The notes under the pieces were generated by a model, which had not been told where the DNA came from, ran no database searches, and saw nothing but the letters and a program-made list of their open reading frames with translations. The translations under genes were made by a program, and so were the position numbers. Below, one piece after another: positions 6,310 to 27,607 of a DNA stretch of 64,000 nt. Source of the DNA: Actinotalea sp. Marseille-Q4924 (GTDB taxonomy: Bacteria; Actinomycetota; Actinomycetes; Actinomycetales; Cellulomonadaceae); NCBI RefSeq assembly GCF_916618755.1, contig NZ_CAKAKB010000006.1, positions 186,001 through 250,000 on the forward strand. Direction: 5' to 3'. How positions within the stretch are numbered: position 1 is the first letter of the stretch; every line of letters starts with the position of its first letter.

Positions 6310-6360
6310 GAGATCGGGGAAGATCCGTGTCGCTATCCGACACGATCCTTCCCCGATCTC
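6310..6360 (+). repeat. Family A palindromic element, copy A4 (subtype with CTATC loop)
   Basis: 51 bp including a 3-bp extension of each arm: two 23-bp arms starting GAGATCGGGGAAG, loop CTATC, 20 of 23 pairs. It lies between two convergent genes, 35 bp after the EF-G2 stop and 13 bp beyond the stop of the AbiEi/DUF559 gene, so it can act as a bidirectional terminator. Its loop type is shared only with A5, on the other side of that gene. Confidence 0.85.
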
Positions 6361-6373
6361 GGGGATCGGCGCC

Positions 6374-7309
6374 TCAGCGGACCGGGCAGGACGGACCGCA
6401 CGCGCGAGGCGTGCCGGTCCAGCCTCTCGACCTGAGCGCCGACACGACCTGTGCCGCCGTCCCGCACGGCGCCCCTGCGACGTGCGACCAGCGGTACCGC
6501 AGGGTCAGCTCGCTGTGCGCGACCACCACCGCGTTGTCGCGCCAGACGTCGTCGTCGACGCGGCCCTCGTGCGCCACACGACCGTCCAGCTCGACGCGCA
6601 CGCCGGTGCCCACGTAGATCGCGTCCGCGCGCGCCCACCGATCACCGAGCCGCTGCCACTGCTGCAGTGCCGCACGTGGCAGGCCGTGCCGCCGCTCCAC
6701 GTCCCGGTGGTAGCGCAGCTCGAGCGCGGACTCGACGCCCTGGGCAGCGGCGTCCAGCAGCTCGTGGAGGAGGGCGCGGCGACGGACCCTCGACCGACGC
6801 CCGGCCGCCTCGAGCACCTCGTCCGGCCGGGTGCCGTTCCGCACGGCAGCCGTGACCACGGCGACAGCGTCGTCGACGGACCGCGCCATCCCGACGAGAT
6901 CGATCACGGTGTCGCCGCGGGGCACCACCGTCAGCCTGCCGCGCACCACGGTGAGGAGCCGGCGCCGGTGGATCCTCAGTCCCGGCCGCTCCACGACTCG
7001 ACGCCCGTGCGGCACGGACACGTCGAGGACGGCCGGTGCCGGCGTCCAGCCGTGGAGGAACGCCGCCGACAGGTGGCTGAGGGCGGCGTCCGTGCCGGCG
7101 TGCTGCAGCGCGGCGCGCGCCCGCGACCGCCACGCCAGCGGGCCGGAGTGGGTGACGTAGACGCCGGGGTGAAGGCGCTGCCAGTGACCGGCGCGGACCT
7201 GACGGTGCACCCAGCTGCGGTCGATCCCTGCCGACTCGAGCTGTGCCGCCGTCAGCACGCCGTCGTGGCCGCGCGCGAGGGCCAGCAGGCGCTCCCGGTC
7301 GACCCCCAT
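6374..7309 (-). CDS. AbiEi-antitoxin-like / DUF559 Vsr-fold protein (paralogue 1)
   Basis: 311 residues. The N-terminus (HDGVLTAAQLESAGID, then VHRQVRAGHWQRLHPGVYVT) is the winged-helix domain annotated as AbiEi-type antitoxin. The C-terminal third has the DUF559 pattern of the Vsr/restriction-endonuclease fold: ESALELRYHRDVERRHGLP, VRVELDGRVAHEG with the expected catalytic Asp, WRDNAVVVAHSELTLRY, and the terminal RGWTGTPRACGPSC. No AbiEii toxin gene is adjacent, so an ordinary toxin-antitoxin role is unsupported. The gene is flanked on both sides by palindromes of the same subtype, A4 after its stop and A5 upstream. A diverged paralogue lies at 26591. DNA binding or nicking is inferred from fold only. 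Confidence 0.8.
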   Translation of the reverse strand: MGVDRERLLALARGHDGVLTAAQLESAGIDRSWVHRQVRAGHWQRLHPGVYVTHSGPLAWRSRARAALQHAGTDAALSHLSAAFLHGWTPAPAVLDVSVPHGRRVVERPGLRIHRRRLLTVVRGRLTVVPRGDTVIDLVGMARSVDDAVAVVTAAVRNGTRPDEVLEAAGRRSRVRRRALLHELLDAAAQGVESALELRYHRDVERRHGLPRAALQQWQRLGDRWARADAIYVGTGVRVELDGRVAHEGRVDDDVWRDNAVVVAHSELTLRYRWSHVAGAPCGTAAQVVSALRSRGWTGTPRACGPSCPVR

Positions 7310-7418
7310 GCCGGCACGGTGCCCGACGCCCGCACGGGGCCCGCGAAGGCGCCGTCACGCAGGTGCACGCGCACTGCCCGGTCCCGCCTGTGCACACCGT
7401 CGGGCCAGTGACGCCGTC

Positions 7419-7463
7419 ACCGGGGAACGTTCGTGTCGCTATCCGCAACCGACCTTCCCCGGT
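7419..7463 (+). repeat. Family A palindromic element, copy A5 (CTATC loop subtype)
   Basis: 45 bp, arms ACCGGGGAACGTTCGTGTC and GCAACCGACCTTCCCCGGT (14 of 19 pairs) around GCTATCC. It is 109 bp upstream of the start of the leftward AbiEi/DUF559 gene. It shares the TCGTGTCGCTATCCG core with A4, so the gene is bracketed by like copies in the same orientation. Confidence 0.8.
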
Positions 7464-7623
7464 AGAGGGGTGGGGCGGGCGAGGGGCGGATGGGGTTGCG
7501 GCGGGACAGGGTGGGGAGGGTCGCGGGCGCGCGGCGACGACGAAGGAGTGGGTGCCGCCCCCGACGCGGCACCCACCCCCGACCGGCGCACCCCTGAGGC
7601 AGGGACCTCGGGCGCGTCGGGCC

Positions 7624-8199
7624 TCAGGCCAGCTCGTCGAACCTCTGCAGCAGCACCGCGAGCGCCTGCCGCGTCACGGGGCGCGAGGGGCGGAAGGTGC
7701 CGTCGGGCATGCCGCGGACCACACCCGCCTCCGCCGCCCAGGCGATCGCCGCGACGCTCGGGTGCCACTGCTGCACGTCCCGGAAGGGAGGCGCACCCGT
7801 GGGCGCCGGGCAGCCGATCGCCCTGTGCAGCGCCAGCACGAGCTCCTGCCGACGGGCGGGCCGCGACGGGCGGAAGCTGCCGTCCGCGTGGACGAGGACG
7901 AGCCGGTGCCGCACGGCCCACGCGATCTCGCGCGCGAGCGGGTGGGTGGCGGAGACGTCGGTGGCCACCATGCCCACGGGGGCGGGGGCGCCGTCGTCGG
8001 CCCCGGCGTAGCGGAACAGCGCCTGGGCGAGCTGGCCGCGCTCCACCGGCTGCATCGGTGCGAAGGTGCGGTCACCGCGGCGGTCGAGCAGGCCCAGGCG
8101 GGTCAGCCAGGCGATCTCGTGCGCGAAGCGGTGACCGGGCGGGACGTCCGGGGAGCCGGCCTGGGGTGCGGCCTGGCCCGCGGGTGCGGTGAGGTCCAT
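7624..8199 (-). CDS. SLH-repeat protein without signal peptide
   Basis: 191 residues, made almost wholly of three S-layer-homology repeats: FAHEIAWLTRLGLLDRRGDRTFAPMQPVERGQLA, then ATHPLAREIAWAVRHRL with SFRPSRPARRQEL, then HPSVAAIAWAAEAGVVRGMPDGTFRPSRPVTRQ-type. In secreted proteins such triplets anchor to cell-wall polymers. Here the start at 8199 (AAGGA spaced 5 nt from the ATG) gives MDLTAPAGQAAPQ with no signal peptide, and I see none upstream in frame. It could be a cytoplasmic SLH-only protein, the remnant of a larger secreted protein, or exported by another route. It is divergent from the siderophore-interacting protein gene. Confidence 0.85.
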   Translation of the reverse strand: MDLTAPAGQAAPQAGSPDVPPGHRFAHEIAWLTRLGLLDRRGDRTFAPMQPVERGQLAQALFRYAGADDGAPAPVGMVATDVSATHPLAREIAWAVRHRLVLVHADGSFRPSRPARRQELVLALHRAIGCPAPTGAPPFRDVQQWHPSVAAIAWAAEAGVVRGMPDGTFRPSRPVTRQALAVLLQRFDELA

Positions 8200-8344
8200 G
8201 TCGGTCCTTCCACGGAGGGTCGCCCCCGACGGTAGGCAGCGGACGTGTCGGCCCGATGGCTGCCGTGTGAACACCTGACGACGGCTGCCGTCGGCACGCG
8301 GACGTACGCTGGCCTGTCCGTCCGCCTCGTCGTCGGGAGCACCC

Positions 8345-9223
8345 GTGAGCAGCATCGCCGGAGCCGGGACCGGCTCGTCCGCCACCTCTCCGTCCGACGT
8401 CGCACCGGCGTCGCCGGTCCGCCGCACGAAGCTGCCGCTGGTGGCCCGCCGGCTGGAGGTCCTGCGGGTCGAGGACCTCTCCGCGTCGATGCGTCGGGTG
8501 GCCCTCGGCGGGCCGGAGCTCGCCGGGTTCCGCTCCGACGGCCCGACCGACCACGCCAAGGTCTGGTTCCCGCCGGACGGTCGGCCCGACGACGCCCCGC
8601 TGCTGCCGTCCGAGGTCGACGGCGCCTGGGTCGCCCCCGACGGCGCCACGTGCCGCGACTACTCCATCCGGACGTTCGACCCGGGGGCGGGCGAGGTGGT
8701 CCTCGACATGGCCGTCCACGCGCACGGCCCGGCCGGTCGCTGGGCGGCGCAGGCCCGCCCCGGGCAGCAGCTCGGTCTGCTGGGTCCGAAGACGACGAAG
8801 ACTCCGCCGATGGACCGCGACCGCTACGTCTTCGCGGTCGACGAGACGGGCCTCCCCGGGCTGCAGAGCTGGCTCGAGCAGCTGCCCGCCGGGCCGCGCG
8901 TGCGCGTGCTCGCCGAGGTGGGCGGCACGGCGGACGAGGTCCCAGTGCCCGAGCACCCGGGCGTCGAGGTCACGTGGCTGCACCGCGGGACCGCGGAGCC
9001 CGGCACGACGACGCTCCTGCCCGACGCGGTCCGCGACGCGCTGACCGAGCTCCCCGACGACGCGACGGTGTGGCTCTGGGCCGCCGCCGAGGCGACGGTC
9101 GTGCGCGCGATCCGCGGGCACGTCACCCGCAGCGGCCTGGACAAGCGCTCCTGCTCGATGACGGGCTACTGGCGTCTCGGGGTCGCGAACTTCGACCACA
9201 AGAGCGAGGACGGCCAGGCCTGA
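8345..9223 (+). CDS. Siderophore-interacting protein, FAD-binding ferric reductase family
   Basis: 292 residues of the ViuB/SIP family. These cytoplasmic flavoproteins reduce ferric siderophores with NAD(P)H or ferredoxin and so free the iron. The FAD-binding R-x-Y-S motif is at RDYSIRTF (Arg104). The NAD-side domain has VLAEVGGTADE and WLWAAAEATVVRAIRG, and the C-terminus has the diagnostic Lys and GYWRLG (DKRSCSMTGYWRLG). The GTG at 8345 is the best start. A hairpin follows the gene, and the next genes encode an iron-siderophore ABC transporter behind an iron box, so the function fits the context. I see no iron box in front of this gene itself. Confidence 0.92.
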   Translation: MSSIAGAGTGSSATSPSDVAPASPVRRTKLPLVARRLEVLRVEDLSASMRRVALGGPELAGFRSDGPTDHAKVWFPPDGRPDDAPLLPSEVDGAWVAPDGATCRDYSIRTFDPGAGEVVLDMAVHAHGPAGRWAAQARPGQQLGLLGPKTTKTPPMDRDRYVFAVDETGLPGLQSWLEQLPAGPRVRVLAEVGGTADEVPVPEHPGVEVTWLHRGTAEPGTTTLLPDAVRDALTELPDDATVWLWAAAEATVVRAIRGHVTRSGLDKRSCSMTGYWRLGVANFDHKSEDGQA

Positions 9224-9241
9224 GCTGCCGCGGGCGCTGCC

Positions 9242-9273
9242 GCCCTCGGCGTCGCGCGCGCCGCACCGAGGGC
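9242..9273 (+). terminator. Terminator after siderophore-interacting protein gene
   Basis: Perfect 8-bp inverted repeat GCCCTCGG (9242-9249) and CCGAGGGC (9266-9273) with a 16-nt GC-rich loop, 18 bp after the stop codon. It separates this gene from the iron-box promoter downstream. Confidence 0.55.
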
Positions 9274-9310
9274 GCCGGTCGCGCCGAGGACCGGTACGGC
9301 TGCGACGAAC

Positions 9311-9347
9311 TTGCCTCGCGACAAAGGTAAGCCTTACCTTCCTCGCG
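9311..9347 (+). promoter_or_regulatory. Promoter of iron ABC operon, probably leaderless
   Basis: TTGCCT (9311-9316), a 17-bp spacer and TTACCT (9334-9339) form a plausible sigma-A-type promoter. Transcription would then start at about 9346-9347, which is the GTG start codon of the ATPase gene, so the mRNA is probably leaderless. The iron box overlaps spacer and -10. Confidence 0.6.
9323..9341 (+). promoter_or_regulatory. IdeR/DtxR iron box
   Basis: AAAGGTAAGCCTTACCTTC is a 19-bp site with a perfect palindrome (AAGGTAAG, C, CTTACCTT) and matches the IdeR/DtxR consensus TWAGGTWAGSCTWACCTWA closely. It covers the likely -10 of the downstream transporter operon, so iron-loaded IdeR would block transcription. 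Confidence 0.9.
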
Positions 9348-10198
9348 TGACCTTGCTGCACTCCCTGCCGACGACCGCACCGTCGCCGACCGCCGACGAC
9401 GACGCGCTGAGCGGCCGCGGCCTCCGGCTGGCCTACGGGCGCGGCGCCGTCGTCGTGCACGAGGCGGACGTCCGGCTGCGCGCCGGCGAGGTCACCGTGC
9501 TCGCCGGGCCGAACGGCAGCGGCAAGTCGACCGTGCTCCGTGCCCTCGCCCGTCTCCACGAGCCGGAGGCGGGCGCGGTCACGCTCCCCGACGGCGACGC
9601 CCGCGCGCTCGACGCCCGCGCCTTCGCCCGCCGCGTCACGCTCCTCGCGCAGAACCGCCCGGTGCCCGGCGGGGTCACGGTGCGCGAGGTCGTCCAGTAC
9701 GGGCGCCACCCGCACCGACCCCGGTGGCGCGGCACCGACGACGACGGCCCGCGCGCCGTCGCGTGGGCCATGGACGTCACCGGCGTCGCCGCCATGGCCG
9801 ACCGTCCCGCGGACGAGCTCTCCGGCGGCGAGCTGCAGCGCGTCTGGCTCGCGAGCAGCCTCGCCCAGGACACGCGCGTCCTCCTGCTCGACGAGCCGAC
9901 GAACCACCTCGACCTCCGGTACCAGGTCGAGGTCCTCGACCTGGTCCGCGACCTCGCGGAGGACCACGGCGTCGCCGTCGGCGTCGTGCTGCACGACCTC
10001 GAGCACGCGGCGCGCGTCGCCGACCGCCTCGTCCTGCTGCACCGCGGCGTCGTCGTCGGCGAGGGACCGCCCGAGCAGGTGCTCGACGCCGCGACGCTCA
10101 CCGAGGTGTACGGCCTGCCCGTCGAGGTCTCGCTCGACGGGCACGGCCACGTCCGGATCCACCCCGTCGGCCGGCAGCGCCGCGCCGCGCCGCGCTGA
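9347..10198 (+). CDS. Iron-siderophore ABC transporter ATP-binding protein
   Basis: 283 residues of the FecE/FepC type. It powers import of ferric siderophore through the fused permease two genes downstream. Walker A GPNGSGKS is at 54-61, the signature LSGGELQR at 158-165, Walker B LLLLDEPT with Asp182 and Glu183, and the H-loop His in VVLHDLEHAARVADR. The GTG at 9347 is chosen because it coincides with the predicted transcription start; an upstream in-frame ATG at 9311 would lie inside the promoter and iron box. About 100 bp without a gene separate it from the binding protein. Confidence 0.92.
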   Translation: MTLLHSLPTTAPSPTADDDALSGRGLRLAYGRGAVVVHEADVRLRAGEVTVLAGPNGSGKSTVLRALARLHEPEAGAVTLPDGDARALDARAFARRVTLLAQNRPVPGGVTVREVVQYGRHPHRPRWRGTDDDGPRAVAWAMDVTGVAAMADRPADELSGGELQRVWLASSLAQDTRVLLLDEPTNHLDLRYQVEVLDLVRDLAEDHGVAVGVVLHDLEHAARVADRLVLLHRGVVVGEGPPEQVLDAATLTEVYGLPVEVSLDGHGHVRIHPVGRQRRAAPR

Positions 10199-10300
10199 GC
10201 CGACCCACCCGCTCCCCGACCACCCTCACCGAGGCCGCCACCGCGGCCGCGGTCGTCGCCCTGCCCACCGCCCGACGCCGACCCCACCCGAGAGGAACCC

Positions 10301-11296
10301 ATGACCCCCGCACGACTCCCCCGCCGCCTCGCCGTCGGCCTGGTCGCCCTGACGACGACGGCGCTCGCCGCCTGCGGCACGACCGAGGACCCGGCCGCCC
10401 CGACGCCCGACGACGAGCCGGCGACCGCCAGCGAACCGGTCACCGTCACCGACGAGCGCGGTGAGGTGACGCTGGACGCCCCGGCCCAGGACGTGGTCTC
10501 GCTCGGGTGGGGCCTCACCGAGAACCTGCTGAGCCTGGGCGTGGTGCCGGTCGGGCAGGCCGACGTCGAGGGCTACGGCACCTGGAACACGGTCGTGCCG
10601 CTCGAGGGGGAGGTCGCGGACGTCGGCTTCCGTGGCGAGCCGAGCCTCGAGGCGATCGCGGCGCTCGACGCCGACCTCGTCGTCACCACGACCGACCTGC
10701 CGGAGGACGTCATCGCGCAGATCGAGGAGCAGGTGCCGGTCGTGGCGCTGCGCGGGTCGGACGCGACCGACCCGATCGGCTACATGCGCGACACCGTCGA
10801 GCTGCTGGGCGAGGTCACCGGCACGCAGGACCGCGCGGACGAGCTGCTCGCGGGCTTCGACGCCGCGCTGGCGGAGGGCCGCGCCGCGATCGAGGAGGCC
10901 GGGCTCGCGGGAGCCCCGGTCGTCATGGCGGACGGCTGGGACACGAACGGGGTCGTCTCCGTCCGCATGTTCACCGACGGCTCGTACTTCGGCGCGATCC
11001 TCGAGGAGCTCGGCCTGGACAACGTCTGGCAGGGCGAGGGCGACCCGGACTACGGGCTGGCGCAGACCGACGTCGAGGGTCTGACCGCCCTCGAGGACGT
11101 CGACTTCCTCTACGCCGCCAACGCCGCGTTCCCCGACCCGTTCGGCGAGAGCCTCGAGGGCAACCCCATCTGGGAGCAGCTGCCCTTCGTGACGTCGGAC
11201 TCGGTGCACCGCATGCCCGACGGCATCTGGCTGTTCGGCGGCCCGGCCTCGGGCGAGGCGTACATCGACGCCGTCGTCGCGGCGCTCACCGCGTGA
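10301..11296 (+). CDS. Iron-siderophore binding lipoprotein
   Basis: 331 residues. The lipoprotein signal ends in ALAAC with Cys25 as the lipidated residue, followed by a Pro/Asp/Thr-rich linker. The body is a class III (FepB/FhuD-type) binding protein: TDERGEVTLDAPAQDVVSLG, EPSLEAIAALDADLVVTT and GPASGEAYIDAVVAAL. It delivers the ferric complex to the fused permease encoded 16 bp downstream. The ATG at 10301 follows GAGAGGAA. Substrate type cannot be told. Confidence 0.93.
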   Translation: MTPARLPRRLAVGLVALTTTALAACGTTEDPAAPTPDDEPATASEPVTVTDERGEVTLDAPAQDVVSLGWGLTENLLSLGVVPVGQADVEGYGTWNTVVPLEGEVADVGFRGEPSLEAIAALDADLVVTTTDLPEDVIAQIEEQVPVVALRGSDATDPIGYMRDTVELLGEVTGTQDRADELLAGFDAALAEGRAAIEEAGLAGAPVVMADGWDTNGVVSVRMFTDGSYFGAILEELGLDNVWQGEGDPDYGLAQTDVEGLTALEDVDFLYAANAAFPDPFGESLEGNPIWEQLPFVTSDSVHRMPDGIWLFGGPASGEAYIDAVVAALTA

Positions 11297-11312
11297 CCCG
11301 CGCCGCCTGACC

Positions 11313-13412
11313 ATGACCACGACCACCCCGGCCGCCGTCGTCGGCCCGCCCGGCGACGTGCCGCGGCCGCCGACGACGGCGCGCGCCCGCACCGCGCGCG
11401 GCGTCGCGTTCGCGCTGGTCGGGGTGGTCGTCGTGGTCCTGGCGGCGGTCGACCTCACGCTGGGCACCGCGGACGTCGACGCGCTGGACCTGCTCGGGCT
11501 GCTCGCCGGCCGTGACGACGAGGCGCTCGCCGTGCTCGTCGCCTCCCGGCTGCCCCGCGTCCTCGCGGCCCTGCTCGTCGGCACGGCCCTGGGCGCCGCG
11601 GGGGCGGTGCTCCAGTCGGTCGCCCGCAACCCGCTCGCGTCGCCGGACACGCTCGCCGTCAACGCCGGGGGCTACCTGCTCGTCGTCGTGGCCGCGGTGA
11701 TCGGGGTGAGCCTTCCCCTGCCGGTGCGCGGGCTCCTGGCCTTCGTGGGCGGCCTGGCGGCGGCGGCCCTCGTGCTCGCCGTCGCCCGGGCCGGCGCCAC
11801 CGGGCCGACGCGCCTCGTGCTCGCCGGCTCGGCGGTCAGCATCGCGCTGGCATCGGTGACGATGGTGCTGCTGCTCGTGTACTCCCAGGAGACGACCGGG
11901 CTGTTCGCCTGGGGCAGCGGCTCGGTCGCGCAGTCCGGGCTGCGGACGGTCACGCAGGTGGCGCCCGTCGTCGTCCTCGGCGTGGTCGCGCTCGTGGCGC
12001 TCGGCCGGCGCCTCGACGTCCTCGCGCTCGGCGACGACGCCGCCCGCTCCCTCGGCCTGGACGTGCGGCGCACGCGCGTGGGCGTCGTCGTGCTGGCGGT
12101 GGTCCTCGCGGCCGCGGCGGTCACCGTCGCGGGCCCCATCGGCTTCGTCGGCCTGGCCGCCCCGGTCCTCGCGCGCATGCTCGCCCGGCGCGTCCCCGGC
12201 CTGTCGGCGCACGGCGCCGTCGTCCCGCTGGCCGCGCTGGTGGGCTGCGTGGTCGTGCTGGCCGCCGACGTCGCCCTGCGCCTCCTCGTGCCGGCGTCGT
12301 CCGGGACGGTCATTCCGACGGGCGTGGCGACGACGCTGGTCGGTGCAGTCGTGCTCGTGGTGGTGGCGTCCCGCCTCCGCGACGACGTCGCCCGCAGCCG
12401 CACGGCGAACGCGGGCGCCCGGCCGGCGACCCGGCGGCTGGTGGCGACCACGGCCGCCGTCGTCGTGGCGCTGCTGGCGGGGGCCGTGGTGGCGGCGCTG
12501 CTGCTCGGCGACCGGCTCCTGCTGCTCGGCGACGTCGGGCTCTGGGCCCGGGGCCGGTCCGGTGGTCTCGTGACGTTCGTGCTGGACCAGCGGGTGCCGC
12601 GGGTGCTGGCCGCACTCGTCGCCGGGGCCGCGCTGGGGCTCGCAGGGACGCTCGTCCAGGCCGTCGCACGGAACCCGCTGGCCGAGCCCGGCCTGCTCGG
12701 CATCACCGGCGGCGCGGGGGTCGGGGCGGTGCTGCTCATCGGCGTCGCGCCGGCCGCCGGGGTGTGGGAGATCTCGGCCGCCGCGGCGGTCGGGGCGGTC
12801 ATCGCCTTCGTCGTGGTCTGGGCGCTCGCCCGGCGCGGCGGGCTCGGCTCGGACCGGGTGGTGCTCGTCGGGGTGGGGGTCAGCGCGGCGGCCGCGGCGA
12901 TCACGACCGTCGTCGTCGTGGTGACGAACCCGTACAGCACGACGGCGGCGCTGACCTGGCTGTCCGGGTCGACGTACGGGCGCTCCCTCGAGCAGAGCGT
13001 GCCCGCTGCGGTGGCGCTCGCCGTCGCGCTCCCGGCCTCGCTCGCCGCTGCTCGGACGCTGGACCTGCTCGCCCTCGACGACGACACCCCCCGCGTCCTC
13101 GGTGTGCCGCTCGGGGGTGCACGGCTGCGCCTGCTCGTGCTGGCCGGGGCGCTGACCGCGTCCGCGGTGTCGGCCGTGGGCGTGGTGGGGTTCGTGGGCC
13201 TCGTGGCGCCGCACCTGGCGCGGCGCCTCGTCGGCTCGGCGCACCGGCGGTCGCTGCCGGTGGCGACGCTGCTGGGCGCGGTGCTCGTGAGCGTCGCGGA
13301 CACGATCGGGCGGACGGTGGTCGCACCCGGCCAGCTGCCCGTCGGCCTCATCACGGCGCTGGTGGGGACGCCGTACTTCGTCCACCTGCTCTGGCGGACG
13401 CGGCGGGCGTAG
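11313..13412 (+). CDS. Fused iron-siderophore permease, two FecCD modules
   Basis: 699 residues, about twice a normal FecCD permease. Two homologous halves, each with about nine or ten membrane segments, are visible from the repeated motif SRLPRVLAALLVGTALGAAG ... LQSVARNPLASPD (about residues 77-115) and QRVPRVLAALVAGAALGLAG ... VQAVARNPLAEPG (about 425-460). Each half also has a GFVGL-containing coupling loop (GPIGFVGLAAPVLARM and GVVGFVGLVAPHLARRL). The fused layout is that of FhuB, so one polypeptide forms the whole membrane channel and only one permease gene is needed. It is the last gene of the iron operon. Confidence 0.94.
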   Translation: MTTTTPAAVVGPPGDVPRPPTTARARTARGVAFALVGVVVVVLAAVDLTLGTADVDALDLLGLLAGRDDEALAVLVASRLPRVLAALLVGTALGAAGAVLQSVARNPLASPDTLAVNAGGYLLVVVAAVIGVSLPLPVRGLLAFVGGLAAAALVLAVARAGATGPTRLVLAGSAVSIALASVTMVLLLVYSQETTGLFAWGSGSVAQSGLRTVTQVAPVVVLGVVALVALGRRLDVLALGDDAARSLGLDVRRTRVGVVVLAVVLAAAAVTVAGPIGFVGLAAPVLARMLARRVPGLSAHGAVVPLAALVGCVVVLAADVALRLLVPASSGTVIPTGVATTLVGAVVLVVVASRLRDDVARSRTANAGARPATRRLVATTAAVVVALLAGAVVAALLLGDRLLLLGDVGLWARGRSGGLVTFVLDQRVPRVLAALVAGAALGLAGTLVQAVARNPLAEPGLLGITGGAGVGAVLLIGVAPAAGVWEISAAAAVGAVIAFVVVWALARRGGLGSDRVVLVGVGVSAAAAAITTVVVVVTNPYSTTAALTWLSGSTYGRSLEQSVPAAVALAVALPASLAAARTLDLLALDDDTPRVLGVPLGGARLRLLVLAGALTASAVSAVGVVGFVGLVAPHLARRLVGSAHRRSLPVATLLGAVLVSVADTIGRTVVAPGQLPVGLITALVGTPYFVHLLWRTRRA

Positions 13413-14063: not shown

Positions 14064-14081
14064 GTCAGGGCGCCGCGACGT

Positions 14082-14126
14082 ATCGGGGAAGGTTCGTCGC
14101 GCATGGCGTCACGGATCTTCCCCGTT
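14082..14126 (-). repeat. Family A palindromic element, copy A6
   Basis: 45 bp, arms ATCGGGGAAGGTTCGTCGC and GTCACGGATCTTCCCCGTT (14 of 19 pairs) with a GCATGGC loop, the reverse of the A1-A3 loop. It begins 18 bp after the methyltransferase stop and lies between convergent genes, where it may serve as a bidirectional terminator. Confidence 0.8.
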
Positions 14127-19954: not shown

Positions 19955-19995
19955 CGTGGAGAGATCCCCGCGCCGGACGCGGGAATGTCCCCACG
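19955..19995 (+). repeat. Family B palindromic element, copy B1
   Basis: 41 bp: arms CGTGGAGAGATCCCCGCG and CGCGGGAATGTCCCCACG (14 of 18 pairs) around a 5-nt loop. It lies 54 bp after the stop of the broken E1 gene. I see nothing else in the 300 bp between that stop and the next gene. Confidence 0.75.
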
Positions 19996-20210
19996 GTCCC
20001 GTGAGTTCCGCGTTCGCAGAGCGGGCACGACACCGAGAGCCTCGCCCGCGCTCGAGGCGTCCCGGGCCGTCGTCGGCGCGCCGGAGCGCCGGGCCCCCAC
20101 CGCCCCGTCACCCCGGTAGGACGCGCATCCGCCGGCGGCACCGCGGAGACCTCACCGCGCCAGGCGCGGCAGATCCTCCACGGTGCCGGGCCGGGTGACG
20201 GGAGCCGGCG

Positions 20211-21253: not shown

Positions 21254-21874
21254 ATGGCCCGGTACTTCGACGTCCACCCGCACGACCCCCAGCCGCGCAC
21301 GATCGGCCAGGTCGTCGCGATGCTGCAGGACGACGCCCTCATCGCCTACCCGACGGACTCCTGCTACGCGTTCGGCGCCCGCCTGGACAGCCCGACGGCG
21401 GCCGAGCGCATCCGGCGGATCCGGCACCTCGGCGACAAGCACCACTTCACGCTCGTGTGCAGCGACTTCGCCCAGCTCGGGCAGTTCGTGCACCTGGACA
21501 ACGCGGCGTTCCGCTCGATCAAGGCCGCGACCCCCGGTGCGTACACGTTCATCCTCCCTGCGACGAAGGAGGTCCCGCGCCGCCTCGCCCACCCGAGGAA
21601 GAGGACCGTCGGCGTGCGGATCCCGGACCACCGCGTCACGCAGGCGCTCGTCCGGGAGCTCGGTGAGCCGCTGCTGTCCTCGACCCTCCTGCTCCCGGGC
21701 CACGAGGAGCCCATGACGGAGGGCTGGCTCATCAAGGAGGAGCTGGACCACCTCGTCGACGCGGTCCTCGACGGCGGGGACACGGGCACCGAGCCGACGA
21801 CGGTCGTGGACTGGTCCGAGGGGTACCCGGAGGTCGTGCGCGAGGGAGCGGGCGACCCGAGCCGCTTCGCCTGA
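21254..21874 (+). CDS. YrdC/Sua5/YciO family protein (threonylcarbamoyl-AMP synthase-like)
   Basis: 206 residues. LIAYPTDSCYAFGARLDSPTAAERIRRIR, KHHFTLVCSDFAQLGQF, PGAYTFILPATKEVPRR, RTVGVRIPDH and PLLSSTLLLPG give the whole YrdC core. In Sua5/TsaC this fold makes threonylcarbamoyl-AMP for the t6A modification of tRNA. The C-terminal extension and details such as DSCYAFG are closer to the YciO branch, whose role is less certain. A second, canonical tsaC may exist elsewhere in the genome. Confidence 0.87.
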   Translation: MARYFDVHPHDPQPRTIGQVVAMLQDDALIAYPTDSCYAFGARLDSPTAAERIRRIRHLGDKHHFTLVCSDFAQLGQFVHLDNAAFRSIKAATPGAYTFILPATKEVPRRLAHPRKRTVGVRIPDHRVTQALVRELGEPLLSSTLLLPGHEEPMTEGWLIKEELDHLVDAVLDGGDTGTEPTTVVDWSEGYPEVVREGAGDPSRFA

Positions 21875-22039
21875 CGAGCCCGGGAACCCGCCGACGGCTG
21901 CTCGCGAGACCGTGCCTCTGGAGTGAGTAGGAGCAGCGGCCGACGGCGCCCGCGGCACCGCGATCTCCCTCTCGCGGGTGAGACCGCACCATCCCTGCGG
22001 GTCTCGTGGCCCGCTGCGTCCGTCGGCCAGGATCGAGCC

Positions 22040-23374
22040 ATGGCATCGACGCAGGGGACCCCGACATCCGTGACCGGCAGCGGCGACGGCCCGGCTCGTG
22101 CGGCCGGCGAGCGCACCGCACCCGCCGCACCCCCGGGCGCCGGCACAGCACCGGCACCGCTCGGCACCACCGCGGCCGACGGCGCCGCCCGGCCCAGCAT
22201 GCAGTGGCCCGTCTCGCTCGGCACCATGGTCGCGGTCCTGATGGCCCGCACGCCGGTCGAGGTGGTCCTGGAGCCCGCGGCGGCGTGGTTCGCCGACGGA
22301 CCCGGCCCGCTGCTCGTCTGGCTCGCGCGCGTCAGCGTGGTCCTCGGGGTCGTGCTCGGTCGGCGGCACCGCCTCCTCGCGAGCCTCCTGGCCGCCCTGC
22401 CGTTCGCGCTCGTGCCGCTCTTGGGCTCCTTCGAGGCGGGCTGGTGGCTGGGGCTCGTCGTGGTCGCGGCCTTCGCCGCGTACGACCGGTCGGTGCTCGC
22501 ACCCGTCCCCATGCTGCTGACCCTGGCCGCCGGGGCGGTGCACGCGTTCCTGGAGGTCCCCGCCGTCATCGGCGCCACTGTCGTGCCGGCGGCGTCGGCG
22601 GGCACGGCCTCGGACGTCAGCCCCTGGGCGCTCTTCGCTCTCGCGACGGTCGCGGCCACCGCCGTCGTCGCCGTCGTCGGAGCCGTCGGAGTCGTGCGGT
22701 ACGCGCGCCGGCAGGACGCCCGCGCGACCGAGGACACCCGCCGGGCGCTGGAGACGGAGTCGGTCGCGGCCGAGCGGGCGCGCGTGGCCCGGGACCTGCA
22801 CGACGTCGTCGCGCACCATGTCTCCCTCGTCGCGGTCCGCGCCGAGAGCGCGCCCTACGTGCACCCCGACCTGGACCCGGTGGCGCGGGGCGTCCTGGCG
22901 GACATCGCGACGGATGCGCGCGGCGCCCTCGACGAGCTGCGTCAGGTCCTCGTCGTCCTGCAGCGCTCGGACACCTTGGGCGCCGAGCGTGCCCCTCAGC
23001 CTGGCGCCGGGGAGATCGCGGGGCTGGTGGAGCAGGCCCGGTCCGCCGGTCAGGACGCCCGGCTGACGTGGACCGGGCCCGCGGACGTGCCCCCTGCGCC
23101 CGGGTACGTGCTGTACCGAGCGGCGCAGGAGGCCCTCACGAACGCGCGCCGTCACGCCTCCGGTGCCGCCGTCGAGCTGGACGTGAGCGTCGCCGACGGC
23201 GCCGCTCGGCTGCGCGCGTCGAACCCGTCCGCCGCGACGACGGTCGTTCCCGGACGAGGGCTGCTCGGGATGCGGGAGCGGACGGAGGCGCTCGGCGGGA
23301 TCCTCGCGGTGACGGCCGACGGCGGCCGGCTCACCGTGGACGTCCGGGTCCCCCTGGGCGGTGGTGCCCTGTGA
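22040..23374 (+). CDS. Sensor histidine kinase (HisKA_3, NarL-partner type)
   Basis: 444 residues. A Pro/Ala-rich N-terminus precedes several membrane segments (about 60-220), then the dimerisation/phosphoacceptor box RARVARDLHDVVAHHVSLV with His254, and an ATPase domain with QEALTNARRHASG (N box) and GRGLLGMRERTEALGG (G box). The ATG at 22040 is preceded by AGGA; earlier in-frame starts lack a good site. It overlaps the response-regulator gene by GTGA. The signal is unknown. Confidence 0.92.
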   Translation: MASTQGTPTSVTGSGDGPARAAGERTAPAAPPGAGTAPAPLGTTAADGAARPSMQWPVSLGTMVAVLMARTPVEVVLEPAAAWFADGPGPLLVWLARVSVVLGVVLGRRHRLLASLLAALPFALVPLLGSFEAGWWLGLVVVAAFAAYDRSVLAPVPMLLTLAAGAVHAFLEVPAVIGATVVPAASAGTASDVSPWALFALATVAATAVVAVVGAVGVVRYARRQDARATEDTRRALETESVAAERARVARDLHDVVAHHVSLVAVRAESAPYVHPDLDPVARGVLADIATDARGALDELRQVLVVLQRSDTLGAERAPQPGAGEIAGLVEQARSAGQDARLTWTGPADVPPAPGYVLYRAAQEALTNARRHASGAAVELDVSVADGAARLRASNPSAATTVVPGRGLLGMRERTEALGGILAVTADGGRLTVDVRVPLGGGAL

Positions 23375-24189
23375 CACCGGGCGGTGCCGACCGGGCCGCC
23401 GGGACCGCCGGGGCGGATGGGGGCGCGGAGGCGGCTCGCGGAGCTGGTCCTGGCGCCGGGACGGAGCGGTCGGCGCGCCGCCCGGAGGCGGCTCGCGGTG
23501 CCGGGACGGTGCACGAGGCGGGGACGGAGCGGTCGGCGGCCGGCCCGATCCGCGTCGTCATCGCCGACGACCAGCCGGTGGTGCGGCTCGGCTTCGCGGC
23601 GATCCTCGACGCGGCGCCGGACCTCGCCGTCGTCGGCTCGGCCGCGGACGGCCGCGAGCTGGTGGCGGCGGTCGCGGAGCACGCGCCCGACGTCGCCGTC
23701 GTCGACGTGCGCATGCCCGTCCTCGACGGGATCGCGGCGACGGCGCTCATCACGCGCGACCACCCGGCGACGCGCGTGCTCGTCCTGACGACGTTCGACC
23801 TGGACGAGTACGTCTACGACGCCCTCCAGGCGGGGGCGAGCGGGTTCCTGCTCAAGGACGTGCCGGCCGAGCGTCTCGTCGAGGGGGTGCGCGCCGTCGC
23901 CGACGGCTCGATGCTCCTGGGGCCGAACGTGACCCGACGGCTCGTGCACGACGTCGCGACCCGGACACCGGAGCGCGCCCCCGTGGACGGGCTCGGCACC
24001 CTCACGCCCCGGGAGCACGAGGTGCTGCTCGCGGTGGCGCGCGGGCTGTCCAACGCGGAGGTCGCGGCGGAGCTGTGGGTGACGGAGCAGACCGTCAAGA
24101 CGCACGTCGCCGCGGTGCTGCGCAAGCTCGGCCGGAGGGACCGGGTACAGCTCGTCATCGCGGCGTACGAGTCGGGGCTGGTCGGCTGA
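23371..24189 (+). CDS. NarL/LuxR-type response regulator with repetitive N-terminal extension
   Basis: 272 residues if read from the GTG that overlaps the kinase stop. The receiver begins only at about residue 60 ([16 protein letters not shown]), the phosphoacceptor is Asp112 in [11 protein letters not shown], and the LuxR helix-turn-helix is [25 protein letters not shown] with [17 protein letters not shown]. The first 57 residues are Ala/Gly/Glu-rich and contain an imperfect repeat (EAARGAG ... GTERSA, twice) caused by a 57-63 bp tandem duplication at about 23426-23538. A GTG at 23509 would give a normal-length protein of 226 residues and may be the true start. Confidence 0.92.
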
Positions 24190-24247
24190 CGGCGTCCGGT
24201 GGGGTGCGCCGGGAATGGACGGCGCCGCGCCGACGGTTGTCGCCGAC

Positions 24248-24694
24248 ATGCCACTGACCGGGGAGTACGCGCCGAGCCCGTCCGACTGGGCCCGCGAGCA
24301 GGCTGAGACGTACGAGGCGACGGACGGCGCGGAGGGCAACCTGCTCCGCGGCGTGCCGATCGTGGTCTACACGTCCGTCGGGGCGTCGTCGGGCAAGCTC
24401 CGCAAGACGCCGCTCATGCGCGTCGAGCACGACGGGCGGTACCTGGCGGTCGCGTCCAAGGGCGGGGCGCCCGACAACCCGGCGTGGTACCGCAACTTCC
24501 TCACCAGCCCGTTCGTCGAGGTCCAGGACGGCGCGCAGCGGTACGACTGCTCCGTGCGCGAGCTGGAGGGTGCCGAGCGCGAGGAGTGGTGGCCGCGCGC
24601 GCTGGAGGTCTGGCCGGACTACGCCGAGTACCAGCGCAACACCGACCGCCTCATCCCCCTGCTGCTGCTCACGCCGTTGACCGCGGACCACTGA
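24248..24694 (+). CDS. Nitroreductase/deazaflavin-dependent (F420) oxidoreductase family
   Basis: 148 residues of the Ddn type, which use cofactor F420. [18 protein letters not shown] is the usual family start, followed by [46 protein letters not shown], the core of the split-barrel fold, and a C-terminal [16 protein letters not shown]. An in-frame ATG at 24215 would add 11 non-conserved residues. The substrate is unknown. It converges with the YCII gene only 19 bp away. Confidence 0.88.
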
Positions 24695-24713
24695 CGGCCT
24701 GACGCCGCGCCGG

Positions 24714-25103
24714 TCAGGCTCCCGGGCCGACCACCGCGCGGACCTCGATCGGCTGACGGAGCGGCCTGCCGCGGGGGCCCGGTGCGGCGGAGAGCCGTCC
24801 GGCGACCTGGAGCGCACGCTCCTCGGTCCCGACCTCGACCGTCCAGTACCCGGCGAGGTGCGTGCGCTCGTCGTCGAACGGCCAGTCCTGGATCACGGGT
24901 GGGTTCGCGCCGTCGCTCCGCACCACCTTCGCGCTCTGCGGCGCCGCGAGGCCCTCGCCACCGACGAGCTCTCCCCGGTCGGCGAGCTCCTGACCGAGCC
25001 GCTGCTGGAAGGCGATGTGCGCGGCGATGTCGGCGCGGTCCCACTGCTCGATCGGCGGGACCCCCGGGATCTCCTCGTACGACATCAGCAGCATGAACCT
25101 CAC
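24714..25103 (-). CDS. YCII-related (YciI/DGPF) protein
   Basis: 129 residues from the GTG at 25103. FMLLMSYEEIPGVPPIEQWDRADIAAHIAFQQRLGQELADRGELVGGEGLAAP and LAGYWTVEVGTEERALQVAGRLSAAPG are typical of the DGPF/YCII family, small ferredoxin-like proteins often paired with extracytoplasmic sigma factors. No sigma factor is next to it here. The function is unknown. Confidence 0.83.
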   Translation of the reverse strand: MRFMLLMSYEEIPGVPPIEQWDRADIAAHIAFQQRLGQELADRGELVGGEGLAAPQSAKVVRSDGANPPVIQDWPFDDERTHLAGYWTVEVGTEERALQVAGRLSAAPGPRGRPLRQPIEVRAVVGPGA

Positions 25104-25267
25104 CGTGCTCGCCTCCCCGCTCCCGCTCCCGCGGTCGACGCACGGTCCCGCGCCCGTCCCGGCGCCGTCGTCGTCGTCGTGCCCTTCGATCATCGCCCGA
25201 CGACGGCGCCCGCGTCACCCTGCGGGCGTGTCGCCGCGTCCGCCCCGTGCGGCACCGCGGCCACGGG

Positions 25268-25312
25268 ATCGGGGATGACTCGTGGCACATGGCGCGACGA
25301 ACGCTCCCCGGT
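25268..25312 (-). repeat. Family A palindromic element, copy A7
   Basis: 45 bp, arms ATCGGGGATGACTCGTGGC and GCGACGAACGCTCCCCGGT (13 of 19 pairs) around ACATGGC, the opposite orientation to A1-A3. It starts 8 bp past the stop of the leftward glycosylase gene. Confidence 0.78.
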
Positions 25313-25320
25313 GTGCCCGT

Positions 25321-26235
25321 CTACCGGGAGCGGTGGTCCTCCACGGCCAGCCGCGGTCCCCGGCGGGGCACCCGCGCCAGCCCGCTGAGCAGCAGGTACC
25401 GGATCGCCCTGTAGCGGTGGCCGCGGTAGGGCTCGAGGAGGGCGAGCATGCCGTCGTCGTCGACCTTCTCGCCGGCGAGCGCCCAGCCGACCTGACCGGC
25501 GAGGTGGTAGTCCCCGACGGAGACGGCGTCGGGGTCGCCGAGCGCGCGCTGCACCGTCTCGGCGACCGTCCACGGACCGATCCCGGGCACCGTGAGCAGC
25601 CGTCGGTGCACCTCACCCGGTTCACGGTCCACTACCTCCTGGAGCCGACCGGCGACCCGAGCGGCGGCGAGGACCGTGCGGGCGCGCTGCGGGTCGACAC
25701 CCGCGCGGTGGAAGTCCCACACCGGCACCTGCGCCCACCCGTCCGCCGACGGCGGGACGCGCATCCCGTCCGGCGCGGGGCCGGGCGCGGGCTCGCCGTG
25801 GCGGACCAGGAGGTGACGCCAGGCGTCGTGAGCCGTCTTCGTGATGACCCGCTGCTCGAGGATCGCGGGGACGAGGGCCTCGAGCACGAGCCCCGTGCGT
25901 CCGATCCGGACGTGCGCGAGCCGGCGGTGGGCGTCGCGCACGAGGCCGTGCGGGGGGTCGAACCCCGAGCAGTCGTCGAGGGCGCCCAGCGCCGCGGGCA
26001 CGCCGGCGAGCGCATCGTCCGCACCGGCTCCCCAGGCTGCCACCTCGACATCGCACGGCCCGACCTGACGGATCCGGACCGTCGCGGGGCCCGACGGGAC
26101 GCGCGTGGTGCGCCAGAACGCGCCGTCGGTGGTCTGCTGGAACGCCGGGTCGCGGAAGCCCCGACGCAGCGGGGACACCGTGCGCCGGACGTCGGTGGGC
26201 GCGCTCAGGGTCAGCGTCGTCGCGAGCGTCGGCAC
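25321..26235 (-). CDS. DNA-3-methyladenine glycosylase II-like (AlkA family)
   Basis: 304 residues from the GTG at 26235. Such enzymes remove alkylated bases to start base-excision repair. The helix-hairpin-helix and GPD motif are clear: LLTVPGIGPWTVAETVQRALGDPDAVSVGDYHLAGQVGWAL, with the catalytic Asp in VGDYHL. ALVPAILEQRVITKTAHDAWRHLL is the conserved helix before it. The N-terminal 120 residues form the AlkA-like beta domain. A much longer upstream frame is open but non-conserved. Hairpin A7 follows the stop closely. Confidence 0.88.
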   Translation of the reverse strand: MPTLATTLTLSAPTDVRRTVSPLRRGFRDPAFQQTTDGAFWRTTRVPSGPATVRIRQVGPCDVEVAAWGAGADDALAGVPAALGALDDCSGFDPPHGLVRDAHRRLAHVRIGRTGLVLEALVPAILEQRVITKTAHDAWRHLLVRHGEPAPGPAPDGMRVPPSADGWAQVPVWDFHRAGVDPQRARTVLAAARVAGRLQEVVDREPGEVHRRLLTVPGIGPWTVAETVQRALGDPDAVSVGDYHLAGQVGWALAGEKVDDDGMLALLEPYRGHRYRAIRYLLLSGLARVPRRGPRLAVEDHRSR

Positions 26236-26590
26236 CCGCGCATCGTCACACGCCCGCCTGACACCCCGGGGCGCACCGGCGCAGCGGGGCGCGGAAAGGT
26301 CACCGTCCCCGCCGCGGCCGATCCTCCGCGATCGCTCAGGACCGCCCCGTGCACGTCGCGTCGCGCCGGATCGCGGAATCTTGCCCGCGTGCGGCGCGGG
26401 GGATCCTCCGCGGTGACCGGGTGAGCCGGCGAGCGGGGCAGCCCTCCGTCGTGCCCAGGACGGGTGGTGACCGGCGGCGTCCACCGCCGACGCGGACCCG
26501 CTTCGGCAGGGCGGTCCTCCGCCGGTCGGATGAGGTGGCACGGAGAACATCCCGTCCCCGATCCGCGACCTCGCCCGGCGGCAGGACGGT
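26236..26590. other. Intergenic region with element B2
   Basis: 355 bp between divergent genes, with family B palindrome B2 at 26372-26412. The last stretch (from 26549) is open in the frame of the next gene and codes for residues similar to the start of its paralogue, so part of it may be coding. Confidence 0.6.
26372..26412 (+). repeat. Family B palindromic element, copy B2
   Basis: 41 bp: arms CGCGGAATCTTGCCCGCG and CGCGGGGGATCCTCCGCG (13 of 18 pairs), loop TGCGG. It lies about 140-180 bp upstream of the second AbiEi/DUF559-like gene. Confidence 0.75.
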
Positions 26591-27493
26591 GTGGTGGCCG
26601 TCGCGCAGTGCGTGGTCGCCGGCCTGGGCGCGGACGCCGTCGAACGCCGGGTGCGCTCGGGGCAGTGGCAGCGCCTGCACAGGGGCGTCTACCTCACCCA
26701 TGCCGGAACGCCGAGCTGGCGGGCCCGCGCGGTGGGCGCGCTGCTCCTGGCCGGAGCCGGCGCAGCGCTCAGCCACCGGTCGGCGTCGTTCGTCCATCAG
26801 CACCTGCGGGACGCCCCGACGGTGCTGGAGGTCTCCATCCCTGAGCACCGTCGGGCGACGGGCGGCCACGGTGTCGTCATCCGGCGACGCCGACAGCTCG
26901 AGGTCACGGTGCGGGCGGGGCTCCCGGTGACCAGCCGCGGGTGGAGCGTCGTCGACGTGCTCGACACGGTCCGCTCCGCTGACGACGCCGTCGGCGTCCT
27001 GACCGCCGCGGTGCGGGCCGGGGTCCGGCCGCAGGAGGTCCTCGACGTCCTGCATCGACGCCCCCGCGCCCGTCACCGCGAGCTCGTCACGGAGCTCCTC
27101 GGCGAGGTCGCCGCCGGGACGGAGTCGGCCATGGAGCTGCGGTACCACCGTGACGTCGAGCAGCGGCACCGCCTGCCGCGGTCGACGCGACAGCTGGCGC
27201 AGGCCGTGGGCGGCCGGAGCATCCGCGCGGATGCGGTGTACGAGGGCATGGGCGTGCGGGTGGAGCTCGACGGCGAGCTCGCGCACCCGGGCGGGCGAAC
27301 GGTCGCCGACACCTGGCGGGACAACGCCGTGCTCGTGGCACTCGGCGAGATCGCCCTCCGGTACCGGTGGCACCACGTCCGCGTGACGCCGTGCCGGACG
27401 GCGGCCCAGGTCGCCGACGCGCTACGCGTCCGCGGGTGGCGAGGAAGCCCTCGACCCTGCGGCCCGACGTGCGCGGTGGCGACAGGCCGGTGA
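26591..27493 (+). CDS. AbiEi-antitoxin-like / DUF559 Vsr-fold protein (paralogue 2)
   Basis: 300 residues from the GTG at 26591. It aligns along its whole length with the protein at 6374-7309: RSGQWQRLHRGVYLTHAG, ESAMELRYHRDVEQRHRLPR, VRVELDGELAHPGG, TWRDNAVLVALGEIALRYRW and WRGSPRPCGPTC. The frame stays open upstream to 26534 and encodes LARRQDGV, matching LARGHDGV of the paralogue, but no ATG, GTG or TTG lies there. An ATC at 26549, 4 nt after GGAG, sits where a start would be expected. So either an unusual start codon is used or the first helix has been lost. Family B elements flank the gene: B2 upstream, B3 two bases after its stop. Confidence 0.78.
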   Translation: MVAVAQCVVAGLGADAVERRVRSGQWQRLHRGVYLTHAGTPSWRARAVGALLLAGAGAALSHRSASFVHQHLRDAPTVLEVSIPEHRRATGGHGVVIRRRRQLEVTVRAGLPVTSRGWSVVDVLDTVRSADDAVGVLTAAVRAGVRPQEVLDVLHRRPRARHRELVTELLGEVAAGTESAMELRYHRDVEQRHRLPRSTRQLAQAVGGRSIRADAVYEGMGVRVELDGELAHPGGRTVADTWRDNAVLVALGEIALRYRWHHVRVTPCRTAAQVADALRVRGWRGSPRPCGPTCAVATGR

Positions 27494-27494
27494 C

Positions 27495-27535
27495 CGCGGA
27501 GACGTCCCCGCGACGGGCACGGGCACCGCTCCACG
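27495..27535 (+). repeat. Family B palindromic element, copy B3
   Basis: 41 bp: arms CGCGGAGACGTCCCCGCG and CACGGGCACCGCTCCACG around ACGGG. It begins 2 bp after the stop codon of the AbiEi/DUF559 paralogue 2. Confidence 0.72.
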
Positions 27536-27566
27536 ATCCTGCGACGCCGCGCACCCCGGCCGTGAG

Positions 27567-27607
27567 CGCGGAGGAGTCGCCGCGCCACGCGCGGGTAAGT
27601 CTCCACG
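27567..27607 (+). repeat. Family B palindromic element, copy B4
   Basis: 41 bp: arms CGCGGAGGAGTCGCCGCG and CGCGGGTAAGTCTCCACG around CCACG. It lies 31 bp beyond B3 in the same orientation, with nothing else recognisable before the next gene at 27696. Confidence 0.75.

What the first reader, a model, noticed from the sequence alone, without database searches (positions are those of the whole stretch)
6310..27607. Two AbiEi/DUF559-like paralogues, each bracketed by its own palindrome family
The gene at 6374-7309 is flanked by A4 and A5, which share a loop type found in no other family A copy. The paralogue at 26591-27493 is flanked by B2 and B3/B4 of an unrelated family. In both cases one copy lies within 2-13 bp of the stop codon and another upstream. 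The proteins combine a winged-helix domain with a Vsr/restriction-endonuclease-like fold and have no AbiEii toxin next door. This recalls REP sequences with their RAYT transposase, but with another protein class. My hypothesis is that each protein recognises, moves or processes its cognate hairpin. Chance, or plain terminators, is the null explanation.
Basis: partly seen in the sequence, partly recalled or inferred. Interest (0 to 1): 0.8.

Follow-up and report, generated by a model that had tools for sequence, protein, structure and literature searches.

The report
Nuclease genes bracketed by matching palindromes
In soil bacteria related to Cellulomonas, many genes for an antitoxin-like DNA-binding protein fused to a DNA-cutting domain sit between two matching 39-letter palindromes that change together with the protein, an arrangement so far known from a quite different enzyme (RAYT), which suggests an independently evolved kind of semi-mobile DNA cassette.

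Summary
Both window genes, and two further homologues in the same genome, lie between copies of their own palindrome family; the A, B and C cores are 37-39 bp. Among Cellulomonas/Actinotalea/Georgenia homologues, 35 of 58 loci pass a strict bracket test against 1 of 358 random intervals; a second test counts 43 of 59. Across Actinomycetota, 15 of 42 AbiEi_4 proteins with the nuclease domain are bracketed and 0 of 20 without it. The protein is an AbiEi-antitoxin fold fused to a Vsr/EDxHD-type nuclease. Palindrome and protein divergence correlate (r 0.42, 0 of 5000 permutations). At orthologous loci the gene is seen flipped in place, and once replaced by a single palindrome. Dispersed sites: 12 (family A), 16 (B), only the bracketing 2 (C). 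One family A site of a relative is empty in two other genomes. Best explanation: the protein binds and cuts its palindrome, and repair between copies flips, deletes, homogenises and occasionally spreads them. Binding and cutting are inferred. The anatomy is RAYT/REP-like; enzyme and copy number are not. Main rival: AbiEi-type operators only.

The parts
6374..7309 (-). AbiEi antitoxin-like + EDxHD/Vsr-type nuclease fusion, paralogue A (311 aa)
6316..6354 (.). family A palindrome next to the stop codon of gene A (arms extend to 6310-6360)
7422..7460 (.). family A palindrome upstream of gene A
3633..3671 (.). dispersed family A palindrome
3742..3780 (.). dispersed family A palindrome, inside a 107-bp tandem duplication with the next
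3849..3887 (.). dispersed family A palindrome
14085..14123 (.). dispersed family A palindrome
25271..25309 (.). dispersed family A palindrome
39994..40032 (.). dispersed family A palindrome; a family A palindrome also at the orthologous place in G004 (L270)
26591..27493 (+). AbiEi-like + EDxHD/Vsr-type nuclease fusion, paralogue B (300 aa from the first GTG; by eye homology reaches about 16 codons further upstream, where the relative L045 has ATG and this gene ACG)
26373..26411 (.). family B palindrome upstream of gene B
27496..27534 (.). family B palindrome, 2 bp after the stop codon of gene B
27568..27606 (.). second family B palindrome downstream of gene B
19956..19994 (.). dispersed family B palindrome
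20143..20181 (.). dispersed family B palindrome
26291..26329 (.). degenerate family B palindrome (2 mismatches to the pattern) upstream of gene B

Best explanation
Each cassette consists of palindrome, gene and palindrome. It encodes a palindrome-specific DNA nuclease: an AbiEi-type DNA-binding module reads one arm of the palindrome, and two such proteins on the dyad place two EDxHD/Vsr-type nuclease domains at its centre. Cutting or nicking there provokes repair against another copy of the palindrome. This flips the cassette, deletes it to a single palindrome, homogenises the two flanking copies (so they evolve as a matched pair with the protein) and now and then seeds copies elsewhere in the genome. 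SHOWN by sequence: the bracket, the matched pair, co-divergence with the protein, the predicted fold and conserved acidic residues, in-place inversions, one single-palindrome allele, presence/absence of one dispersed copy between species. INFERRED: binding, cutting, the repair route, and any benefit to the host or to the cassette itself.
For: Bracketing in 43 of 59 loci; 35 of 58 against 1 of 358 random intervals at score >=18 and palindrome >=10. 15 of 42 nuclease-bearing against 0 of 20 nuclease-less AbiEi_4 loci, Fisher p 0.0013. The two copies of a locus are 82% identical (n 41), against 55% between 21 orthologous loci and 30% for shuffled arms; Mantel r 0.42 with protein identity over 42 bracketed loci, 0 of 5000 permutations. 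D229 and E240 invariant and E197, D242, H247, D254, R257 at least 90% conserved in 60 proteins across the phylum. Fold: AbiEi plus I-Bth0305I/Vsr. AbiEi is known to bind two 23-bp inverted repeats 3 bp apart (PMC7319586, passages), close in size to these palindromes; I-Bth0305I dimerises on a target of nearly 60 bp (PMC3943268, passages). Gene flipped in place while both flanks keep order: L052/L081, L072 against L054, L061, L074, L080 and L087 (against L050 one flank only), L095 against L059 and L061, gene A against L057; in 22 chosen locus pairs only 340 of 250,076 aligned flank bases are in the minority orientation. L247 has one copy of the palindrome where its relative L249 has palindrome-gene-palindrome. 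A family A site of G004 is empty at the orthologous place in G000 and G002. 0 of 28 A and B sites of the own genome look coding, against 259 of 400 random positions.
Against: No binding or cleavage was tested. No target-site duplication or insertion end was resolved. 16 of 59 close loci and 27 of 42 phylum-wide nuclease-type loci show no bracket by the strict test. Three loci used for the flips, L057, L059 and L095, are among those 16, so flips are not tied to brackets in every case; flip boundaries are known only to within a few hundred bases. Family A copies also occur in genomes without a close A-type protein (G002, G010, G013), and family B copies in G013 without a detected B-type protein. 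Families C and L153 have only the two bracketing copies. Several dispersed sites are shared between species, so turnover is slow. No plasmid record and one partial, unannotated phage-labelled record carry a relative. The nuclease-less control loci have lower mean G+C (0.57 against 0.66; 13 of 20 are at 0.55 or more), and 40 of the tested loci were chosen by frame length (277-388 codons).
Confidence: 0.52

Rival explanations
1. Autoregulation only: as in AbiE type IV toxin-antitoxin operons, the AbiEi-like part binds the palindromes as operators. The dispersed copies are a small regulon and the nuclease part does something else, for example cutting foreign DNA.
For: AbiEi and Rv2827c bind inverted repeats upstream of their own genes and repress them (PMC7319586, passages); size and symmetry of the sites fit; the upstream copies lie 112 and 179 bp from the two window genes. 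Symmetric changes of both arms between genomes are also what a dimer operator would show.
Against: The second copy sits at the stop codon. 8 of 28 A/B sites lie between convergent genes, where no promoter is expected; three of the eight are bracketing copies themselves. 0 of 20 AbiEi_4 loci without a nuclease domain have the bracket. In-place flips and a single-palindrome allele are not explained.
Confidence: 0.23
2. REP/RAYT-like transposition through single-stranded hairpins: the protein excises and inserts the palindrome itself as folded single-stranded DNA.
For: Anatomy as described for RAYT genes: gene flanked by two palindromes, palindrome and protein trees agree, copies enriched near the gene (PMC2817692, passages); 8 of 12 family A sites lie in one 36.4-kb stretch that holds gene A; covariation of arms over 36 family A sites from 6 genomes (46 double changes against 18.2 in shuffles).
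Against: The nuclease is not a Y1 tyrosine enzyme. Arm covariation within the own genome is weak for A (18 of 500 shuffles reach it) and not beyond shuffles for B (85 of 500); between the two copies of a locus one-sided changes outnumber compensated ones 126 to 15. Copy numbers are low.
Confidence: 0.12
3. Homing-type drive: the palindrome is the cleavage and insertion site, and the gene with one extra palindrome is copied into single-palindrome alleles after cutting.
For: The domain matches I-Bth0305I by profile (E 0.0034) and by fold; occupied, empty and single-palindrome alleles exist at one locus.
Against: The occupied allele keeps two intact palindromes and would be cut too. Presence is patchy between species; no polymorphism within a species was examined.
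Confidence: 0.08
4. Plain terminators or chance.
For: One copy lies close to the stop codon in many loci, as a terminator would.
Against: No terminator-like site in either window region; a run of four T or A beside only 2 of 86 bracketing palindromes; random-interval control 1 of 358.
Confidence: 0.03

Closest known systems
REP sequences with RAYT (TnpA-REP) transposases
   Same: Gene between two copies of its own short palindrome; palindrome sequence follows protein clade; dispersed extragenic copies, some concentrated near the gene; orthologous position kept between species
   Different: RAYT is a Y1 tyrosine (IS200/IS605-related) enzyme, REPs usually exceed 100 copies and bear a GT(A/G)G head (PMC2817692, passages). 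Here an AbiEi + EDxHD/Vsr fusion, 2 to about 20 copies, no such head seen, cassette inversions
AbiE type IV toxin-antitoxin antitoxins (AbiEi, Rv2827c)
   Same: Residues 2-189 have the AbiEi fold; inverted repeats of similar size near the gene
   Different: Extra nuclease domain, no AbiEii match beside the window genes, second palindrome after the gene, dispersed copies
EDxHD homing endonucleases (I-Bth0305I) and Vsr
   Same: C-terminal fold and acidic/His residues
   Different: No sign of an intron or intein was looked for; the DNA-binding part is AbiEi-like; palindromic partner sequences
DUF559 / REase_MTES_1575 (Pfam)
   Same: 15 and 19 of 60 aligned members match these models; MTES_1575 was described as a Vsr-type REase domain (PMC3710099, passages)
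   Different: The window proteins themselves match neither; no palindrome association in the passages and listings seen

Membership tests
REP/RAYT system | Y1 tyrosine transposase | tested here: not met
   60 members scanned with Pfam match AbiEi_4, MTES_1575, DUF559, AbiEi_1, AbiEi_3_N, PvuRts1I-like_N and RAP only; fold is AbiEi + Vsr/EDxHD
REP/RAYT system | gene flanked by two copies of its palindrome | tested here: met
   43 of 59 loci; both window genes
REP/RAYT system | high copy number (usually over 100) | tested here: not met
   A 12, B 16 at <=1 mismatch (20 at <=2), C 2, L153 type 2
REP/RAYT system | conserved GT(A/G)G head at the palindrome foot | tested here: inconclusive
   none seen by eye in the flanks of 28 A and B sites; no statistical test
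AbiE type IV toxin-antitoxin | AbiEi antitoxin fold | tested here: met
AbiE type IV toxin-antitoxin | adjacent AbiEii (DUF1814) toxin gene | tested here: not met
   six ORFs around the two window genes, no match; other loci not scanned
EDxHD homing endonuclease | EDxHD nuclease fold and residues | tested here: met
EDxHD homing endonuclease | homing into an uncut allele | not testable with these tools
   needs cells
Insertion sequence | defined ends with target-site duplication | tested here: inconclusive
   empty/filled pairs L249/L247 and L269/L294 are too diverged to resolve ends
Intrinsic terminator | stem-loop followed by T-run | tested here: not met
   0 in two regions; 2 of 86 bracket palindromes with a run of four T or A alongside

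The most novel reading that the evidence does not exclude
An old, Actinomycetota-wide class of semi-domesticated selfish cassettes in which an AbiEi-EDxHD nuclease and its private palindrome co-evolve, flip, collapse to solo palindromes and seed the genome: an independent, convergent invention of the REP/RAYT way of life by an enzyme that shares its parts with antitoxins and homing endonucleases.
Probability: 0.43. Interest if true: 0.92.

Novelty: categorically new. Interest (0 to 1): 0.85.

Why it matters
Many actinobacterial proteins carry only the names AbiEi domain or DUF559 (52 of 80 sampled genomes have an AbiEi_4 match). The palindrome pair gives part of them a concrete, testable DNA target and suggests that these are not toxin-antitoxin parts but palindrome-acting nucleases. 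If they do act on their palindromes, REP/RAYT-like systems have arisen at least twice from unrelated enzymes, which bears on the open question of why bacteria keep dispersed palindromes. Each protein-palindrome pair is also a natural series for studying how specificity co-evolves, and a possible source of long-site nucleases.
Full report
WHAT WAS CLAIMED AND WHAT IS THERE. The window belongs to a 3.64-Mb genome (G000); named close relatives are Actinotalea and Cellulomonas species. Gene A (6374-7309, minus) and gene B (26591-27493, plus) are 57% identical. Gene A lies between palindromes 6316-6354 and 7422-7460; gene B between 26373-26411 and 27496-27534 plus 27568-27606. The A and B palindromes have one geometry: 39 bp, a 17-base arm, 5 bases, a 17-base arm. 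Two more homologues were found in the genome, L003 (56%) and L004 (29%), and both are bracketed by families of their own, C and D. So four of four homologues found in this genome are bracketed, by four different palindrome families; all four pass the test.

HOW MANY COPIES. A pattern that fixes 15 of the 39 positions finds 12 family A sites in the genome, each 39 bp, with no reversed-pattern control hit; 8 of the 12 lie in one 36.4-kb stretch that holds gene A. Family B has 16 sites at up to one mismatch (20 at up to two, where the control finds 1 forward and 1 reverse), on four of the six contigs, five of them in the window. Family C has only its two bracketing copies within three mismatches. 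0 of 28 A and B sites (12 + 16) look coding by a codon-position test, against 259 of 400 random window positions; a second, rough gene call puts one of the 28, window 19956, inside a predicted gene.

IS THE BRACKET MORE THAN CHANCE, AND IS IT GENERAL. One scan of genome contigs gave 61 loci with named organisms. L105, a fragment, was left out; with the four genes of this genome 64 loci were held. Three near-duplicate or partial loci (L086, L089, L091) were dropped, and L073 and L075 for short flanks. Of the remaining 59, 43 have a palindrome pair with score at least 18 and empirical p at most 0.02 against other loci's flanks. In a separate test, 35 of 58 genes but 1 of 358 random 900-bp intervals of the same loci pass at score 18 and palindrome 10; without the palindrome condition, at score 20, 43 of 58 against 3 of 358. 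The 16 misses are L054, L055, L057, L059, L060, L061, L062, L066, L067, L069, L079, L082, L088, L095, L100 and L101; some of them, such as L061, L069 and L079, do show a matched pair in the looser alignment.

A BUILT-IN CONTROL. Proteins with the same N-terminal Pfam domain (AbiEi_4) were sought in 80 genomes of the phylum; 52 have a match. Of the listed matches I examined 69: the 30 returned loci less the own gene, and 40 that I chose with open frames of 277-388 codons. Five had no suitable ORF and two short flanks, which leaves 62. With a nuclease-type C-terminal domain (iterative HMM) 15 of 42 are bracketed; without it 0 of 20 (Fisher p 0.0013). The bracket thus goes with the nuclease, not with the AbiEi-type part alone. 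Caveats: 27 of 42 nuclease-type loci had no bracket by this test, and the 20 control loci have lower mean G+C (0.57 against 0.66; 13 of 20 at 0.55 or more).

CO-EVOLUTION. In 42 bracketed loci, pairwise palindrome identity correlates with protein identity (Mantel r 0.42, 0 of 5000 permutations); mean palindrome identity rises from 0.46 below 45% protein identity to 0.85 at 80% or more. The two copies of one locus are on average 82% identical (n 41), orthologous loci of different species 55% (21 loci), palindromes with shuffled arms 30%. 29 loci share at least one flank and 25 both, an inositol-phosphate-synthase-like gene on one side and an MFS-type transporter on the other (gene names by eye), so they are orthologues at one place whose palindromes differ strongly between species while the two copies within a species match. 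Family A sites in 19 genomes of the genus: G000 12, G004 10 (its A-type protein is 80% identical), G002 6, G010 5, G013 3, and one each in G009, G001 and G018, the last two of other lengths (40 and 35 bases); none in 11. Read by eye, the inner stem tends to be typical of each genome, on both arms. Family B: G000 16, G004 5, G013 8, G003 2, none in 15. Against a simple one-to-one rule, G002, G010 and G013 have A-like sites without a close A-type protein, and G013 has B sites without a detected B-type gene; G013 is a draft in many contigs. A contig-end homologue in G013 is C type, 79% identical to the own C protein, and carries a C-type palindrome upstream.

HAIRPIN OR SYMMETRIC SITE. Over 36 family A sites from six genomes, pairs change on both sides far more often than in shuffles (46 against 18.2, 0 of 500). 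Within this genome alone the signal is weak for A (18 of 500 shuffles reach the score) and not beyond shuffles for B (85 of 500). Between the two copies of a locus (40 loci), 126 changes hit one side, 15 both sides with pairing kept, 16 both sides without; both-sided changes exceed expectation (31 against 16.3; the maximum of 2000 permutations was 28), although that test does not correct for differences between loci. A symmetric site read by two protein molecules explains the between-genome result as well as a hairpin does.

MOVEMENT. At three positions the gene is inverted between orthologous loci while both flanks keep their order: L052 against L081 (about 9 kb of alignment on either side); at the shared locus L072 against L054, L061, L074, L080 and L087 (against L050 only one flank is held) and L095 against L059 and L061; and gene A against L057 next to an EF-G-like gene. 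In 22 locus pairs that I chose, only 340 of 250,076 aligned flank bases are in the minority orientation. L057, L059 and L095 are not bracket-positive; L052, L081, L072 and gene A are. At the shared locus 14 of 30 Cellulomonas-group loci hold the gene, 15 do not, and one (L227) ends too soon to tell; in a wider sample of the family 3 of 30 hold it and one holds a remnant. The gene-less L247 has one copy of the palindrome where its relative L249 has palindrome, gene, palindrome between the same neighbours; L247 has a second, different hairpin nearer the synthase gene. Gene-less L232 and L205 also hold palindrome-like sequences. For a dispersed copy, a family A site of G004 lies between two genes that are adjacent, without palindrome, in G000 and G002. 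Other dispersed sites are shared between species (L270 with window 39994, L282 with L214, L284 with L211, L286 with L223), so turnover is slow. The L153-type palindrome has only its two bracketing copies in its genome (within three mismatches) and none in six others.

HOW IT MOST LIKELY WORKS. AbiEi binds two 23-bp inverted repeats separated by 3 bp (PMC7319586, passages read), and I-Bth0305I dimerises on a target of nearly 60 bp (PMC3943268, passages). A 39-45 bp palindrome is about the size expected for two fusion proteins, one per arm, with their nuclease domains meeting at the centre. Cutting there and repair from the matching copy could produce what is seen: inversion, collapse to one palindrome, matched pairs, occasional new copies. 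This is inference; no binding or cutting was tested. The strongest rival is pure autoregulation on the AbiE model. Against it stand the second copy at the stop codon, 8 of 28 sites between convergent genes (three of them bracketing copies), the dependence on the nuclease domain, and the flips.

COMPARISON WITH WHAT IS KNOWN. The anatomy matches RAYT genes, described as always flanked by two REPs, with agreeing REP and RAYT trees and new copies near the gene (PMC2817692, passages) and as single-copy genes whose phylogeny largely follows the species (PMC3116915, passages). It is not a RAYT: the enzyme is of another fold and copy numbers are low. It works like one in outline. It is AbiEi-like by fold but no toxin partner was found at the two window loci. 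Ten paper searches listed no report of palindromes bracketing AbiEi/DUF559-type genes; subscription papers are not in that library.

VERDICT. Observation confirmed and extended. Interpretation supported in its main line; the mechanism is still to be shown at the bench.

Noticed in passing
window 26543-26599: By eye, homology of gene B extends about 16 codons upstream of its first GTG; where the relative L045 has an ATG this gene reads ACG, so it may use an unusual start or be impaired. Described only.
   Followed up: partly
window 3702-3900: A 107-bp unit with a family A palindrome is duplicated in tandem (95% identical over 92 bases), a sign of local spread.
   Followed up: no
L287 (G004) 271-1175 against L289 (G000): A segment with a PadR-like regulator and a membrane-protein gene (by eye) lies between two family B palindromes in G004 and is absent at the orthologous place in G000; G013 has a family B palindrome at the same junction.
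   Followed up: partly
L188 / L032 (G010): Remnant of about 30 C-terminal residues of a homologue, inverted relative to the synthase gene, beside a palindrome: a decaying cassette.
   Followed up: no
L200 / L018 / L029 (G012): Homologue at the shared locus broken: two overlapping partial matches, one with an internal TGA.
   Followed up: no
L147 (G019): Matched flanks made of long repeats (score 149) rather than a simple palindrome beside a nuclease-type homologue.
   Followed up: no
window 58051-58099: Perfect 17-bp inverted repeat with 15 bases between the arms, not of family A or B.
   Followed up: no
window 27645-27685: Perfect 16-bp GC-rich inverted repeat just after the second downstream B palindrome, without T-run.
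   Followed up: no
window 40339-40441: 18-bp direct repeats; coding status not checked.
   Followed up: no
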